Assembly: GCA_902562285.1 (NCBI GenBank)
Contig: CACESU010000012.1
Span: 1-52,176, forward strand
Reading direction: 5' to 3'
Source of the DNA: an uncultured Alphaproteobacteria bacterium
Lineage (GTDB): Bacteria > Pseudomonadota > Alphaproteobacteria > Rhodobacterales > Rhodobacteraceae
DNA: 52,176 bases
The notes below the pieces were generated by a model. The model saw only the letters and a program-made list of their open reading frames with translations, was not told where the DNA came from and did no database searches. The translations under genes were made by a program, and so were the position numbers. Positions 34,422 through 39,851 of the stretch are shown piece by piece. Position 1 is the first letter of the stretch. Each line of letters starts with the position of its first letter.

Positions 34422-36485
34422 ATGTCTGATTTAATTTTAGAATTTTATTCAGAGGAAATTCCTTCAAGAATGCAAAAAAAAGCTTCTATTGATTTAAAAG
34501 ATATTTTTACAGAAGGTTTAGTTGATGCTGGCTTAGATTACTATAAAATCGAAACCTTTGTTACACCTAGAAGATTAGCTTTAATAGTAAAGGGTCTTTC
34601 AAATAGCTCTAAATCATATTTCGAAGAAAAAAGGGGGCCAAGAGTTGGATCTCCAGAAAAAGCAATAGAAGGTTTTGCGCGTTCATTAAGTATAGATAAA
34701 TCTTCTTTATTTATAAAAAAAGAAAAAAAAGGTGATTTTTATTTTCACAAAGTACATCAAAAAGGAAATTCTGCAAAAGAAATTATAGTAAAAATTTCTA
34801 CAGATATTATATCAAATTTCCCTTGGAAGAAATCAATGAGATGGGGAGAAGGAAATTTAAGGTGGGTAAGGCCTCTAAAATTTGTTTATTGTGCATTGTT
34901 TGAAAATGATACAAGTTTTGAAATTATTGATTTGAGATTAAAAGAAATTTCTTCAGTAAATTTTACTTTAGGTCATTATATGATTTCTTCTAAAAAAATC
35001 TTTCCAAAAAATGTAAATGATTATTTAAAACAATTAGTCGAAAATAAAGTTATTTTAGATAAAAGTGAGAGAAAAAAAATTATAGTGAATTCATATAAGA
35101 AGTTGCTTATAAATGAAAATTCTTGTGTGATAGATGATGAAGATCTTATCGATGAAATAGTTGGCTTGGTTGAGTGGCCTGTAGTATTTTTAGGATATAT
35201 TGATGAAGAATTTTTAACTCTACCCAAAGAAATTCTACAAGTTACAATGAAAGAACATCAAAAATTTATATCAGTTATTAACAAAGAAACTGAAGTAATT
35301 GATAAATTTATAGTAGTTGCAAATATGCTTGCAGAGGATGGAGGAGAAGCCATTTTAAGGGGTAATTCTAGAGTTTTGCGATCAAGATTAAAAGATGCAA
35401 AATTCTTTTTTGAAAATGATATCAAAGTTATTGAAAAAAAAGGTCTATCAAGTTTTACAAATAATTTGAATAAAGTAACTTTTCATAATAAAATTGGAAG
35501 CCAATTGGATAGGGTAAATAATATTGAAGAAATTTCTCAAAAAATTTCAAAATTATTAGGTGTGGATAATTCAAAATGTAGAATTGCTGCTAGATTGTGT
35601 AAAGCAGATTTAGTTACCCAAGTAGTATCAGAATTACCGGAATTACAAGGAGTAGTTGGTAAAATTTATGCAGATCATGAGGGTATAGATCATGTCATTT
35701 CTGATTCAATTAGAGAGCATTACTTACCAATCAAGCTTAATGATAGAGTACCTTCACAATCAATTTCTATAGTCATTGCCATCTCAGATAGAATCAATTC
35801 TTTAATAAGTTTTTGGAAAATTAAAGAAAAACCTACTGGATCAAAAGATCCATTTGCATTGAGAAGGTCTGCGATAGGTTTAATTCGTATAATTATAGAA
35901 AATAAATTAGACATAAACATTGGAAAATTAATCTCTAGTAAATTAGACAACAGAGACTCTAATGATTTAATTAAATTCTTGGAAGATAGATTTAGAGTCT
36001 ATTTATTAGAGAAAGATTTTGATCATGATTTATTAGAATCTTGTTTGCAATTTAGCAATTTAAATAATCCTTATTTAATTTATCTAAAAATACAAAGCAT
36101 AAAAGAATTTAAAAAAACTGATGAGTTCAAAAAGCTAATGAATTCTTACAAAAGGCCTATAAATATATTAAATGCAGAGGAAAAGAAAAATAATTATGTT
36201 CTATCTGATGCGCCATCAAAAGAACTTTTTGAAAAAAATGATGAAATAGTATTATATAAAAAGTTAATTGAAGTTGAAAGTGAAGTTAGTGATGCACTTG
36301 AAAAACATGATTTTAAGTTAGCACTACAATCTTTATCAAATTTTGACGATGAAATTGAAAATTTTTTTAAAAATGTTGTCATTAGCTCAGATAAAACTAA
36401 TATAAAGATTAATAGATTAAATTTGTGTTATAAAATAAGAAAGCTCATGCATTCAGTAGCATATTTTGGTCAATTAAATCTCTAA
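34422..36485 (+). CDS. glyS: Glycyl-tRNA synthetase subunit beta
   Basis: tRNA-binding subunit that works with GlyQ. The 687 residues begin with LILEFYSEEIPSRMQ, contain GWVE-like core blocks such as EGNLRWVRPLKFV and DPFALRRSAIGLIRI, and end in the anticodon-recognising region. Size and order are as expected. It ends 20 bases before the PPDK homologue. Confidence 0.97.
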   Translation: MSDLILEFYSEEIPSRMQKKASIDLKDIFTEGLVDAGLDYYKIETFVTPRRLALIVKGLSNSSKSYFEEKRGPRVGSPEKAIEGFARSLSIDKSSLFIKKEKKGDFYFHKVHQKGNSAKEIIVKISTDIISNFPWKKSMRWGEGNLRWVRPLKFVYCALFENDTSFEIIDLRLKEISSVNFTLGHYMISSKKIFPKNVNDYLKQLVENKVILDKSERKKIIVNSYKKLLINENSCVIDDEDLIDEIVGLVEWPVVFLGYIDEEFLTLPKEILQVTMKEHQKFISVINKETEVIDKFIVVANMLAEDGGEAILRGNSRVLRSRLKDAKFFFENDIKVIEKKGLSSFTNNLNKVTFHNKIGSQLDRVNNIEEISQKISKLLGVDNSKCRIAARLCKADLVTQVVSELPELQGVVGKIYADHEGIDHVISDSIREHYLPIKLNDRVPSQSISIVIAISDRINSLISFWKIKEKPTGSKDPFALRRSAIGLIRIIIENKLDINIGKLISSKLDNRDSNDLIKFLEDRFRVYLLEKDFDHDLLESCLQFSNLNNPYLIYLKIQSIKEFKKTDEFKKLMNSYKRPINILNAEEKKNNYVLSDAPSKELFEKNDEIVLYKKLIEVESEVSDALEKHDFKLALQSLSNFDDEIENFFKNVVISSDKTNIKINRLNLCYKIRKLMHSVAYFGQLNL

Positions 36486-36505: not shown

Positions 36506-39085
36506 ATGAAAGAAAATCATAAATCACTGATATCTACTGCTTCAAAACTTGTATTATCTCAAAAAAAATTTGGTTATAGATCTACAATTTTGTCCAAGTT
36601 GAGTAAGATTGGTTTTCCTATTGTTGAAGGTTTTTTTATCTCTTCTGAAATTATGAAACAAATAGAAATTGGAAAAAAAACTCTACAAATTCCCAGCAAA
36701 TTTTTAGAGTGTGGACCCTTTTGTTTAAGATCTAGCACAAAAAGGAAAGAATTTGCAGGACTTGAACCTTTTTTATTCTTAGGACTTAATAAAGATAAAA
36801 TTGAAGAGTTATCTTATAAATACGGGCAAAAAAAACTAAATCAAATTTACCTTAGTTTTATAAAAAATTTTGGAATTAGAGTTTTTGATCTTGAGGTGGA
36901 TTTTTTTGAAAATATTATTACGAAAACTTTAAAGAAAAAAAAAATAAGTTCTGTAAATAATTTGGACATAAAATCTTTAAATTTTTTGATAAATGAATTT
37001 GAGGAATATTATAGGAGTAGTTTGGGTTTTGATTTCCCAGAAGATCCATCTAAACAAATACATTATGCTTTAAAGGCTTTAGTTAATGAATGGCAAAGTC
37101 CAACATCAAAAATTTTAAGAAACTCTTTAGGTATAGTAAATGAAGATCATGTAGCTTTTATAATTCAAAAAATGATTTTTAAGAATACAAATTCTCATAC
37201 AATAGATTTAGAAATTCAATTTATTGATAGTAGCACTGGTGAAGAAAAAATTAATGGCCGATACAAAAAAATTGGACAAAACCAATCAACTTCAAAAAAT
37301 TTTGAAGGTATTAATTTCAAATATTTGCTATCAAAAAATATTGAGGTTGGTAGACCTAAATTCAATCTATTTTCAAATCCTTTTTTTAGAAAAATAAATG
37401 AGTTAGATAAAAAAACTTCAAAGATTTCTGAAAAAAAATTGAAATATAGATTCATATTAAATGCTGATGATATTTTTTTAGTAGATGCTCAGCAAGTTGA
37501 TTTAGAAACATCTGCAATATTAAAATTGCATATGGATAGCGTAAAAAAAGGCATATTAAGTAAAAAGCAAATTATTTCAAAAGTAGAACCTGAAATTTTT
37601 GTTCAATCATTACATCCACAAATAAGTCAAAATTCAGAACTTGATATAATTGGGGTTGGATTGCCAGCTAGTCCAGGAGGAGTTTCTGGAAAAGTAGCAT
37701 TCAGAGCTGAAGAAGCAATTAGAATGAGTTCAAAGGGAATGACTGTAATTTTGGTAAGAAGTGAAACCAGCTCTGAAGATATACGAGGGATGCATGCTTC
37801 TGCTGGGGTCTTAACATTAAGGGGAGGAATGAGTAGTCATGCGGCTGTGGTTGCTCGTGGTCTTGGAAAACCCTGTGTAGTAGGTGTAAGAAATCTAAGT
37901 ATAAATAGTAGTTTAAATTCAATTACGACTTCAGAGGGAGAAGTTCTTAAATCTGGTGATATTGTTACTATTGATGGATCAAATGGCCAAGTTTTAAAAG
38001 GCAGTGCCAGTATGGTTAAACCAAAGCTGCCAAAATATTTTTTTGAAATTTTAGACTGGGCTCGTGACCTTGGAAATATATGTATTAAAGCTAATGCTGA
38101 CACCATTAAGGAAGCTAAGCAAGCCAAGGGATTTAAGGTTGATGGTATAGGATTATGTAGAACAGAGCATATGTTCTTTGAAAAAAAATCATTGCAAATC
38201 ATGCAGAAGATCCTTCTTTCTCCTCTCGAAAGTGATAAAATTGATGCAATTGCTAGCCTTTCAAAAATTCAGGTATTTGAGTTTGAAAAAATTTTTAAAA
38301 TAATGCTTGGTAAAACTGTAACTACCAGATTACTTGATTTACCAGTTCATGAGTTTTTACCAAATAGTATAAATGAATTAGAAATTTTAGCTGATGAACT
38401 TAAAATGTCTTTCTTACAAGTTTCAGAAAGATGCAAACAAATGGCAGAGATAAATCCAATGCTAGGTAAAAGAGGGGTAAGGTTAGGCATTTTATTACCT
38501 GAGTTATATAAAATGCAAGTAAAATCAATAATTAAAGCAAGCATAATTGTTTATGGAAAAAGTCAAAAAGAATACCCTCCAGAGATTATGTTACCTATGG
38601 TATCCTCTTATAAAGAAGTTAACCTTCTTAAAAAACTAATTGATGATGTAGTTATTGAAATAAATGAAGAAATAAATTTTCCAATTAACTATAAGTTGGG
38701 AGTAATGGTTGAAACACCAAGAGCTGCACTTAAAGCGGGTGAACTAGCAAAAATAAGTTCTTTCCTAAGTTTTGGAACTAACGATTTAACTCAAATGACA
38801 TATGGATTAAGTAGGGACGATTCTGGAACATTTATGCGAGATTATCTAGAAAAAGGGATATATCCAGATGATCCATTTCGATCTTTAGACTTAGATGGTG
38901 TTGGAGAGTTACTAAAAATAGCCTCAAAAAAAAGCAGAGCTGCTAATCCTACAATCAAAATTGGTATTTGTGGTGAACATGGTGGAGATCCAAAATCAAT
39001 TGATTTTTGCAAAAAAATTGGTTTAGATTTTGTTTCATGTTCACCTTTTCGTGTCCCAATTGCTAGGATTGCTGCTGCTCAATAA
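36506..39085 (+). CDS. ppdK: Pyruvate phosphate dikinase homologue with degenerate ATP-grasp domain
   Basis: PPDK normally interconverts pyruvate, ATP and phosphate with PEP, AMP and diphosphate. In 859 residues the His domain is intact (phospho-acceptor H445 in RGGMSSHAAVVARG), and so is the PEP/pyruvate barrel: R552, R608, E736 in MVETPRAAL, N759-D760, and the acid C845 in VSCSPFRVP. The N-terminal third is not: the usual GGKGANLAEM is FGYRSTILSKL (22-32), RxNPSTGE has become IDSSTGE, and the block matching E323 and Q335 of the Clostridium enzyme reads RFILNADDIFLVDAQQ (315-330), with R and D at those places. The gene order glyS-ppdK-SleB is normal. It may lack ATP turnover. Confidence 0.9.
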   Translation: MKENHKSLISTASKLVLSQKKFGYRSTILSKLSKIGFPIVEGFFISSEIMKQIEIGKKTLQIPSKFLECGPFCLRSSTKRKEFAGLEPFLFLGLNKDKIEELSYKYGQKKLNQIYLSFIKNFGIRVFDLEVDFFENIITKTLKKKKISSVNNLDIKSLNFLINEFEEYYRSSLGFDFPEDPSKQIHYALKALVNEWQSPTSKILRNSLGIVNEDHVAFIIQKMIFKNTNSHTIDLEIQFIDSSTGEEKINGRYKKIGQNQSTSKNFEGINFKYLLSKNIEVGRPKFNLFSNPFFRKINELDKKTSKISEKKLKYRFILNADDIFLVDAQQVDLETSAILKLHMDSVKKGILSKKQIISKVEPEIFVQSLHPQISQNSELDIIGVGLPASPGGVSGKVAFRAEEAIRMSSKGMTVILVRSETSSEDIRGMHASAGVLTLRGGMSSHAAVVARGLGKPCVVGVRNLSINSSLNSITTSEGEVLKSGDIVTIDGSNGQVLKGSASMVKPKLPKYFFEILDWARDLGNICIKANADTIKEAKQAKGFKVDGIGLCRTEHMFFEKKSLQIMQKILLSPLESDKIDAIASLSKIQVFEFEKIFKIMLGKTVTTRLLDLPVHEFLPNSINELEILADELKMSFLQVSERCKQMAEINPMLGKRGVRLGILLPELYKMQVKSIIKASIIVYGKSQKEYPPEIMLPMVSSYKEVNLLKKLIDDVVIEINEEINFPINYKLGVMVETPRAALKAGELAKISSFLSFGTNDLTQMTYGLSRDDSGTFMRDYLEKGIYPDDPFRSLDLDGVGELLKIASKKSRAANPTIKIGICGEHGGDPKSIDFCKKIGLDFVSCSPFRVPIARIAAAQ

Positions 39086-39191: not shown

Positions 39192-39851
39192 ATGAAATTT
39201 TATACAAAAATAAATTATTTAATTTTTTTCAAAATCTTTTGTATATTATTTTTTAATTCTTTGCATGCAGAAGAAACAAAAAATAGTACTGAAAAAAGTT
39301 ATACAGATACTTATGTATTTTTAAAAAATTTTATTGATTCTGATCTTTTATTTATATCTTCATTAAGTCAGAATACTTTAAAGAATTTTTCAGGTTTTTC
39401 TGATTTTGATAAAGGAAAGTTTTCCTTTGATATTATTGATAGTTTGCCTAAACCCAAAGCAACCTCTGAAATGAAATGTTTAGCAGAAGCTATTTATTTT
39501 GAAGCTAGGGGTGAAGCACTTGAAGGGCAATATGCTGTTGGTGAAGTAATTATTAATAGAGTATTATCAAAAGATTTTCCAAACAGTGTATGTGGAGTAA
39601 TTTCAGAAGGGGCAACTAGACTAAATGCATGCCAATTTTCTTATAATTGTGATGGTAAATTAGAGACTATTACAGAGAAAAAAATTTATGAAAGAATTTT
39701 GAAATTATCTAAAATGTTATTAGAGCCATCTGCTAGGTTTCTTACTAATGGAGCAACTTTTTACCATTCTAAGTTAGTAAGCCCTAGTTGGTCAAAGAAA
39801 TTTATAAAAACAAATGAAATTGGAAATCATGTTTTTTATAAATTGCCATAA
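39192..39851 (+). CDS. Cell wall hydrolase, SleB-like (exported)
   Basis: Predicted periplasmic peptidoglycan hydrolase of the SleB/CwlJ family (Hydrolase_2). A signal peptide with a hydrophobic stretch to about residue 24 ends near LHA. The domain starts near 95 and has CLAEAIYFEARGE, where E104 matches the catalytic Glu, then GQYAVGEVIINRVLS and NACQFSYNCDGK. The 219 residues are typical. A promoter may lie in the 106-base gap, where TTGCAT and TATGAG are 17 bases apart near 39135-39163. Position after ppdK is conserved in alphaproteobacteria. Confidence 0.85.
   Translation: MKFYTKINYLIFFKIFCILFFNSLHAEETKNSTEKSYTDTYVFLKNFIDSDLLFISSLSQNTLKNFSGFSDFDKGKFSFDIIDSLPKPKATSEMKCLAEAIYFEARGEALEGQYAVGEVIINRVLSKDFPNSVCGVISEGATRLNACQFSYNCDGKLETITEKKIYERILKLSKMLLEPSARFLTNGATFYHSKLVSPSWSKKFIKTNEIGNHVFYKLP

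What the first reader, a model, noticed from the sequence alone, without database searches (positions are those of the whole stretch)
36506..39085. PPDK homologue with a decayed ATP-grasp domain but intact phosphohistidine and PEP sites
Seen: H445, R552, R608, E736, N759, D760 and C845, and long stretches around them, are conserved, while the N-terminal ~340 residues lack the GGKG loop, the RNPSTGE block and the E323/Q335 equivalents (R and D by my hand alignment); one arginine (R75) of the SVRSGA block survives. Known: E323 and Q335 are needed for ATP turnover in Clostridium PPDK. Inference: selection still acts on the PEP half, so the protein may be a PEP/pyruvate-His phosphotransferase, similar in logic to enzyme I of the PTS, with an unknown partner, rather than a true dikinase. 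The gene remains in its usual place after glyS, so it is the resident gene and not a second copy.
Basis: partly seen in the sequence, partly recalled or inferred. Interest (0 to 1): 0.72.

Follow-up and report, generated by a model that had tools for sequence, protein, structure and literature searches.

The report
Pyruvate dikinase without its ATP site
A gene labelled as the ATP-using enzyme pyruvate phosphate dikinase has lost its ATP site while keeping its phosphoenolpyruvate half intact, and a similarly rebuilt protein is found across most of the bacterial family Rhodobacteraceae, so the label may be wrong in many species.

Summary
Window 36506-39085 encodes an intact 859-aa PPDK homologue with all His- and PEP-site residues, but Pfam no longer recognises its ATP-grasp domain. 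Profile-profile alignment confirms K22R, E323R, Q335D and R337Q.

It is bigger than one genome. Of 150 genomes of the family (Rhodobacteraceae), 146 carry a homologue; one scored as canonical. In 96 typical members K22R, E271R and Q335D are fixed and seven His/PEP residues unchanged; deep branches vary. In the nucleotide domain 34 canonical-invariant positions switched to another conserved residue, against five elsewhere: rebuilding rather than decay, with relaxation in the window's genus. E271R is one of three mutations of Clostridium PPDK that left its His domain beside the PEP domain (2R82). The regulator PDRP survives in 8 of 150, mainly where PPDK is least diverged. Published 13C data show no or weak pyruvate-to-PEP flux in three roseobacters.

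Best reading: an ATP-blind PEP/pyruvate phosphohistidine protein. Acceptor and biochemistry are untested.

The parts
36506..39085 (+). ppdK homologue, 859 aa, intact ORF (whole feature)
   Evidence: full-length homologue in 9 of 12 genomes of the genus (own included), no stop inside in any of the 9
36563..37510 (+). Altered former nucleotide-binding (ATP-grasp) domain, residues about 20-335
   Evidence: PPDK_N not detected; ATP-site residues replaced; AlphaFold model with residues 257-285 at pLDDT below 50
36578..36580 (+). R25 = K22 of C. symbiosum PPDK (GGKG loop lost)
   Evidence: R in 96 of 96 typical Rhodobacteraceae and 8 of 9 of the genus
36728..36730 (+). R75 = R92, the one scored ATP-site residue that is kept
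   Evidence: R in all groups
37259..37261 (+). R252 = E271, same substitution as E271R of the engineered mutant 2R82
   Evidence: R in 96 of 96 typical and 6 of 9 genus copies; PDB 2r82 title; PMC5371819 passages
37448..37450 (+). R315 = E323 (lost in the window's genus, kept in 89 of 96 typical members)
37484..37486 (+). D327 = Q335
   Evidence: D in 96 of 96 typical and 9 of 9 genus copies
37643..38005 (+). Phosphohistidine (swivelling) domain, residues about 380-500, with S443-S444-H445
   Evidence: PF00391 80 bits; H455 equivalent kept in every sequence
37838..37840 (+). H445 = phospho-accepting H455
38045..39082 (+). PEP/pyruvate-binding domain, residues 514-859, with R552, R608, E736, N759, D760, C822
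   Evidence: PF02896 249 bits; these residues kept in every sequence
34422..36485 (+). glyS, upstream neighbour that marks the resident locus (name by eye from the translation)
   Evidence: conserved order
39192..39851 (+). SleB-type cell-wall hydrolase gene, conserved downstream neighbour (name recalled, not scanned)
   Evidence: motif found downstream in 78 of 79 named loci with enough sequence

Best explanation
The protein is an ATP-blind relative of PPDK. Its PEP and His domains still run the reversible half-reaction PEP + His445 <-> pyruvate + phospho-His445, but the former ATP-grasp domain no longer binds ATP/AMP or docks the His domain for phosphotransfer from ATP, so the cell gets no PEP from pyruvate by this route. 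The state of His445 then follows the PEP/pyruvate ratio, and the rebuilt N-terminal domain serves as a new acceptor or effector module. Most simply, the change happened once, early in Rhodobacteraceae, on the resident glyS-linked gene; in the window's genus the N-terminal domain has since loosened further. Shown here: residue changes, domain-specific conservation, conserved locus, scarcity of the regulator. Inferred: single origin, the half-reaction, the absence of ATP turnover, and the output role.
For:: no PPDK_N in three window-genus proteins, three typical members and one deep member; two deep members give 18 and 23 bits (cut-off 27); two canonical relatives 208 and 193. PEP-utilizers_C scores stay close (242-251 against 269-272). 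His/PEP residues invariant; 80 of 135 canonical-invariant NBD positions lost against 5 of 67 (linker/His) and 10 of 146 (PEP); the ten PEP-synthase-like proteins fetched from family genomes keep D-x-E, Q-x-R and GGK (they were the ten best PPDK_N hits, so a favourable sample); the triple mutant R219E/E271R/S262D has its His domain next to the PEP domain; in the 96 typical members E271 is R and R219 is T or S. PDRP in 8 of 150 genomes, among them 7 of the 8 with the least diverged PPDK (the 750-bit line was drawn after seeing the data); no or weak pyruvate-to-PEP flux in three roseobacters with an annotated ppdK.
Against: No biochemistry. In most typical members R92, E323 and a conservative K22R remain, and D335 could in principle bind Mg2+, so nucleotide binding cannot be excluded outside the window's genus. 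Deep-branching members are mixed: K22 is kept in L126, L153 and L155, R219 in L155, R337 in L126 and L030, and L159 has S at E271. I had no model coordinates, so the pocket was judged from alignments only. The flux data come from few growth conditions, in one study with low ppdK expression, and those three species were not among my sequences. The PDRP link is confounded by shared ancestry, and G114 (808 bits) lacks PDRP. No acceptor or partner was found.
Confidence: 0.6

Rival explanations
1. It is still a working dikinase with a shifted ATP site: R22, R92, E323 and D335 form a new Mg-ATP site, possibly with a phosphate acceptor other than Pi.
For: R92 96/96, E323 89/96, D or E at 280 in 85/96 typical members; NBD under strong purifying selection outside the genus and mostly high pLDDT in the Phaeobacter model; ATP-analogue-bound 5jvl chains are among the best Foldseek matches.
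Against: Q335 and R337, kept by PEP-synthase-like proteins of the same family, are replaced in 96 of 96 typical members; E271R and E279R (96/96, 90/96) reverse charge; the regulator is rare; zero or weak flux. In the window's genus E323 is lost as well (9 of 9).
Confidence: 0.2
2. It is a PEP-protein phosphotransferase like enzyme I of the PTS, handing phosphate from His445 to a separate carrier protein.
For: PEP domain shared with enzyme I; HPr-type proteins in 51 of 61 genomes, own genome included.
Against: No enzyme-I N-terminal domain among the Pfam matches; a separate PtsP-like frame exists; HPr is about as common with canonical PPDK (14 of 15 other-family genomes with a PPDK match below 1e-140) as in the family (34 of 37); no obvious partner gene beside it.
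Confidence: 0.25
3. In the window's genus it is a remnant on the way to a pseudogene.
For: NBD w 0.10-0.30 in four genus pairs against 0.02-0.05 in nine other pairs; a loop at pLDDT below 50; no full match in 3 of 12 genus drafts.
Against: Nine of nine copies are open; His domain w 0.015-0.05; every scored catalytic residue is kept. The three drafts are 66-83% complete.
Confidence: 0.1
4. It acts as a PEP phosphatase: phospho-His445 is released to water, giving pyruvate and Pi.
For: The PEP half is intact and the ATP half is not.
Against: Pyruvate kinase is present in all 25 family genomes tested, so a wasteful bypass has no evident use.
Confidence: 0.08

Closest known systems
Pyruvate, phosphate dikinase (EC 2.7.9.1, TIGR01828; C. 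symbiosum 1KBL, maize 1VBG, Flaveria 5JVL)
   Same: Domain order, overall predicted fold (TM 0.81 to 5jvl_A), His and PEP catalytic residues
   Different: PPDK_N not detectable; K22, E271, D321, E323, Q335 and R337 replaced in the window protein; 740 bits against a 843-bit cut-off
C. symbiosum PPDK triple mutant R219E/E271R/S262D (PDB 2R82)
   Same: E271R and loss of R219 occur naturally in typical members and in the window protein
   Different: Natural, with the ATP site also changed; the S262 position is variable (still S in the window protein); the docking effect is inferred, not measured here
Enzyme I of the PTS (PtsI, PtsP)
   Same: PEP domain that phosphorylates a histidine on a mobile domain
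   Different: No enzyme-I N-terminal domain found; His domain of PPDK type
PEP synthase (EC 2.7.9.2)
   Same: Distant relative in all three domains (recalled; C-terminal match)
   Different: Ten PEP-synthase-like proteins of the family keep the GGK, DxE and QxR motifs lost here

Membership tests
Pyruvate, phosphate dikinase (EC 2.7.9.1) | NCBIfam TIGR01828 above its cut-off (843.45 bits) | tested here: not met
   740.4 bits. In one search: canonical 1427 and 1397; typical members 840, 830, 842; deep members 872 and 892 (over the cut-off) and 778; two genus members 763 and 721
Pyruvate, phosphate dikinase (EC 2.7.9.1) | ATP-grasp domain PPDK_N (PF01326) | tested here: not met
   no match at E<=10; 208 and 193 bits in two canonical relatives
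Pyruvate, phosphate dikinase (EC 2.7.9.1) | ATP-site residues K22, R92, D321, E323, Q335, R337 (list recalled) | tested here: not met
   only R92 kept
Pyruvate, phosphate dikinase (EC 2.7.9.1) | Phospho-accepting His and PEP-site residues | tested here: met
   H445, R552, R608, E736, N759, D760, C822
Pyruvate, phosphate dikinase (EC 2.7.9.1) | Three-domain PPDK fold | tested here: met
   predicted only: AlphaFold pLDDT 84.5; Foldseek TM 0.81 to 5jvl_A
Pyruvate, phosphate dikinase (EC 2.7.9.1) | ATP + Pi + pyruvate <-> AMP + PPi + PEP activity | not testable with these tools
   needs purified protein
Enzyme I of the PTS | HPr-binding N-terminal domain (PEP-utilisers_N; family name recalled) | tested here: not met
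   only two Pfam families match at E<=10
Enzyme I of the PTS | NCBIfam PTS_I_fam (TIGR01417) above its cut-off (341.7 bits) | tested here: not met
   132.2 bits, best stretch 647-852
PEP synthase (EC 2.7.9.2) | TIGR01418 above its cut-off (739.75 bits) | tested here: not met
   125.1 bits

The most novel reading that the evidence does not exclude
Across Rhodobacteraceae the gene called ppdK encodes not a metabolic enzyme but a PEP-fed phosphohistidine protein, in which an ATP-grasp domain was rebuilt into a new acceptor or effector module. It would be a second entry point, besides enzyme I, through which PEP phosphate reports or drives another process, present in nearly every genus sampled of a major marine bacterial family.
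Probability: 0.35. Interest if true: 0.8.

Novelty: new variant of a known kind. Interest (0 to 1): 0.6.

Why it matters
Genome papers and models of this family use the gene as a pyruvate-PEP enzyme: a mixotrophic CO2-assimilation route was proposed on it (PMC2761930 and PMC3230580 passages), and a D. shibae model runs PEP-to-pyruvate through the dikinase in all states (PMC3789786 passage). If the protein cannot use ATP, those routes would be wrong, the null 13C flux would be explained, and a widely kept protein of unknown output is exposed. It would also be a natural experiment in which a swivelling-domain enzyme was cut to one half-reaction, partly by a substitution that structural biologists had made on purpose.

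Tried and rejected
Rejected: a second canonical PPDK elsewhere. In 150 family genomes only G087 scores as canonical, with a single match, next to glyS; in the own draft the only PPDK_N protein is a different one with a 788-aa frame. Rejected: misalignment hiding the ATP residues; HMM-HMM alignment gives the same pairs. Rejected: an artefact of one genome. Considered: a role as glycolytic bypass; pyruvate kinase is present in 25 of 25 family genomes tested. Considered: HPr as a specific partner; its occurrence does not track the PPDK type. No partner was found by neighbourhood.

Led nowhere: papers on ppdK knock-outs in Rhodobacter or roseobacters (listings; passages of PMC12868695, PMC12542648 and PMC4052901 and of PMC4334477, none about the function of this protein).

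AlphaFold/Foldseek limits: both models lie closer to 5jvl and 1vbg (TM 0.76-0.85, His domain at the PEP side) than to 1kbl/1dik (0.62-0.66); 2r82 itself gives 0.73. I had no canonical control model, so I do not count this as evidence. The structure alignments used 59 (A3) and 48 (A4) of the 80 named loci, plus the window protein.

Rows dropped from the residue counts: L037, L044, L049, L079, L088 and L093 of the 80 named loci (N runs, unclear start or short or broken frame), L152 (broken frame), and duplicates of genes already counted (L131, L132, L145-L149, L156, L158). In one search YN00 gave no value for the NBD in 3 of 7 window-genus and 2 of 11 other pairs, and for the PEP domain in 4 of 7 and 1 of 11; the His domain outside the genus gave 0.02-0.12 (6 of 11), so it is not more constrained there than the NBD. 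The Fisher tests ignore shared ancestry and are not used as proof.

Full report
WHAT IS THERE. The ORF at 36506-39085 (+) is intact, 859 aa, directly after glyS and before a SleB-type hydrolase gene (neighbour names by eye). Pfam finds only the two C-terminal PPDK domains; PPDK_N does not appear at E<=10. NCBIfam TIGR01828 scores 740 bits, below its 843-bit cut-off. phmmer aligns residues 75-859 to C. symbiosum PPDK chains at E about 1e-155, best 5e-156. In C. symbiosum numbering, derived from the chain coordinates printed, the changes are K22R, E271R, D321K, E323R, Q335D and R337Q; R92 and all scored His and PEP-site residues are kept, with C822 (not C845) as the Cys831 equivalent. That these ATP-site residues matter for turnover is recalled from the PPDK mutant literature; a passage of PMC5507339 says that Arg95 and Glu324 of the Flaveria enzyme are directly involved in ATP binding. 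A separate HMM-HMM alignment of window-genus, family and canonical N-domains pairs the same residues.

WHO ELSE HAS IT. The window is contig 12 of a 1.73-Mb, 68% complete draft. Among 61 genomes the gene is in 9 of 12 drafts of the genus and in 25 of 25 genomes of other genera of the same family, some cut by contig ends; the 19 of these that I aligned all have an altered N-domain. Of 150 family genomes, about one per genus and at least 90% complete apart from the own draft, 146 have a match at E<=1e-60; one of them, G095, has a second, shorter one; four have none. G087 carries a canonical gene next to glyS. In one search, 15 canonical sequences (14 from other families plus G087) keep the scored ATP-site residues 15/15. 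In 96 typical Rhodobacteraceae K22R, E271R and Q335D are 96/96, E279R 90/96, R337 is never R, R219 is T or S in 96/96, while R92 is kept 96/96 and E323 89/96. In nine window-genus copies E271 is R in 6, S in 2, Q in 1, and E323 is S, R or K. H455, R561, R617, E745, N768, D769 and C831 are invariant in all groups. Deep-branching members are mixed: K22 stays in L126, L153 and L155, Q335 is A in L126 and D in the others, and E271 is S in L159. A quick tree of the C-terminal half puts all family sequences, G087 included, on one side of a branch with SH-aLRT 99, with the window's genus as one clade on a long branch; many inner forks are open and G087 is a long branch. The simplest reading is inheritance in place from a canonical ancestor.

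DECAY OR REBUILDING. Of columns invariant in canonical PPDK (at least 14 of 15), the canonical residue is kept in under 10% of 115 typical members at 80 of 135 in the nucleotide domain, 5 of 67 in linker/His and 10 of 146 in the PEP domain; at 34, 2 and 3 of the invariant columns another residue is conserved in at least 93%. Pairwise dN/dS (YN00) of the N-domain is 0.02-0.05 in nine other Rhodobacteraceae pairs, close to that of the PEP domain (0.01-0.05, ten pairs). In the window's genus it is 0.10-0.30 (four pairs), against 0.015-0.05 for the His domain (four pairs) and 0.03-0.14 for the PEP domain (three pairs). The domain looks rebuilt and held in the family, and loosened in the window's genus. 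As a control, ten PEP-synthase-like proteins of family genomes, the ten best PPDK_N hits, keep GGK, D-x-E and Q-x-R.

THE DOCKING SURFACE. Foldseek lists 2r82, a C. symbiosum triple mutant R219E/E271R/S262D, among the closest solved structures. PMC5371819 (passages read) says that in this mutant the His domain rests by the PEP domain and that introduced charges mimic repulsion from the nucleotide domain. From memory, the original paper (Lim et al. 2007; not held) reports that the mutant keeps the PEP half-reaction but loses the overall reaction. Here E271R and the loss of R219 are fixed in the typical members; in the window protein E271 is R and R219 is T, while S262 is still S; R219 is T in 8 of 9 genus copies.

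THE REGULATOR. PDRP (PF03618), the known regulator of PPDK (function recalled), is found in 11 of the 15 other-family genomes that have a PPDK match below 1e-140, but in 3 of 37 family genomes of that sample and in 8 of 150 in the larger sample. Seven of the eight genomes with the least diverged PPDK (above 750 bits to canonical) have it; the eighth carrier, G180, has a contig-truncated gene with 54% identity. G114, with 808 bits, lacks it, which goes against a strict rule.

PHYSIOLOGY IN PRINT. In D. shibae and P. gallaeciensis, 13C data on glucose showed no PEP from pyruvate although ppdK is annotated (PMC2761930 passages). In R. denitrificans the flux is weak, which the authors link to low ppdK expression (PMC2749216 passages). 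I did not have these three sequences. A D. shibae model uses the reverse reaction in all states (PMC3789786 passage). I found no paper that reports the altered ATP domain (searches; listings seen, open-licence full texts only).

MECHANISM. I take the protein to be an ATP-blind PEP/pyruvate phosphohistidine protein. The residue state, the conservation pattern and the locus are shown; the half-reaction, the absence of ATP turnover and the output are inferred. Outside the window's genus a shifted ATP site (R22, R92, E323, D335) remains possible; I give it 0.2. Pyruvate kinase is present in all 25 family genomes tested. An ATP-type PEP carboxykinase match is present in 22 of these 25, of which 16 are full length, 5 are a compact form and one (G018) is in pieces with stops. 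AlphaFold gives the three-domain fold for the window protein (pLDDT 84.5) and the Phaeobacter protein (84.6).

Noticed in passing
L181:3677-4870 (G000:C2:47748-48866), - strand: Five genomes of the genus (G000, G001, G002, G007, G010) have a compact, about 400-aa ATP-type PEP carboxykinase homologue (294-301 bits) where G003-G006 have the usual 534-546 aa (678-684 bits); the GLSGTGKT P-loop is kept.
   Followed up: partly
G095:C33:123613-125082: A family genome has, besides the altered PPDK, a 654-aa open frame that matches residues 29-560 of canonical PPDK at 48% identity, that is, the nucleotide and His domains without the PEP domain.
   Followed up: no
L031 (G000:C27:1582-4860): A protein with a 788-aa frame and a PPDK_N match of 37-40 bits (over the cut-off) that keeps DxE and QxR sits next to an adenylylsulfate-kinase-like ORF in the window's genome (the kinase name is by eye).
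   Followed up: no
G002-G007 genomes: Six genomes of the window's genus carry a second, shorter (349-413 aa) pyruvate-kinase-like gene at 117-142 bits.
   Followed up: no
NCBIfam TIGR01828 cut-off: Three typical Rhodobacteraceae members score 830-842 bits, just under the 843.45-bit cut-off, and two deep members just over it, so automatic naming of this protein is probably inconsistent across the family.
   Followed up: no
37832-37834 (residue 443): The window genus mostly has Ser (8 of 9) where PPDK has the regulatory Thr453 beside the catalytic His.
   Followed up: no
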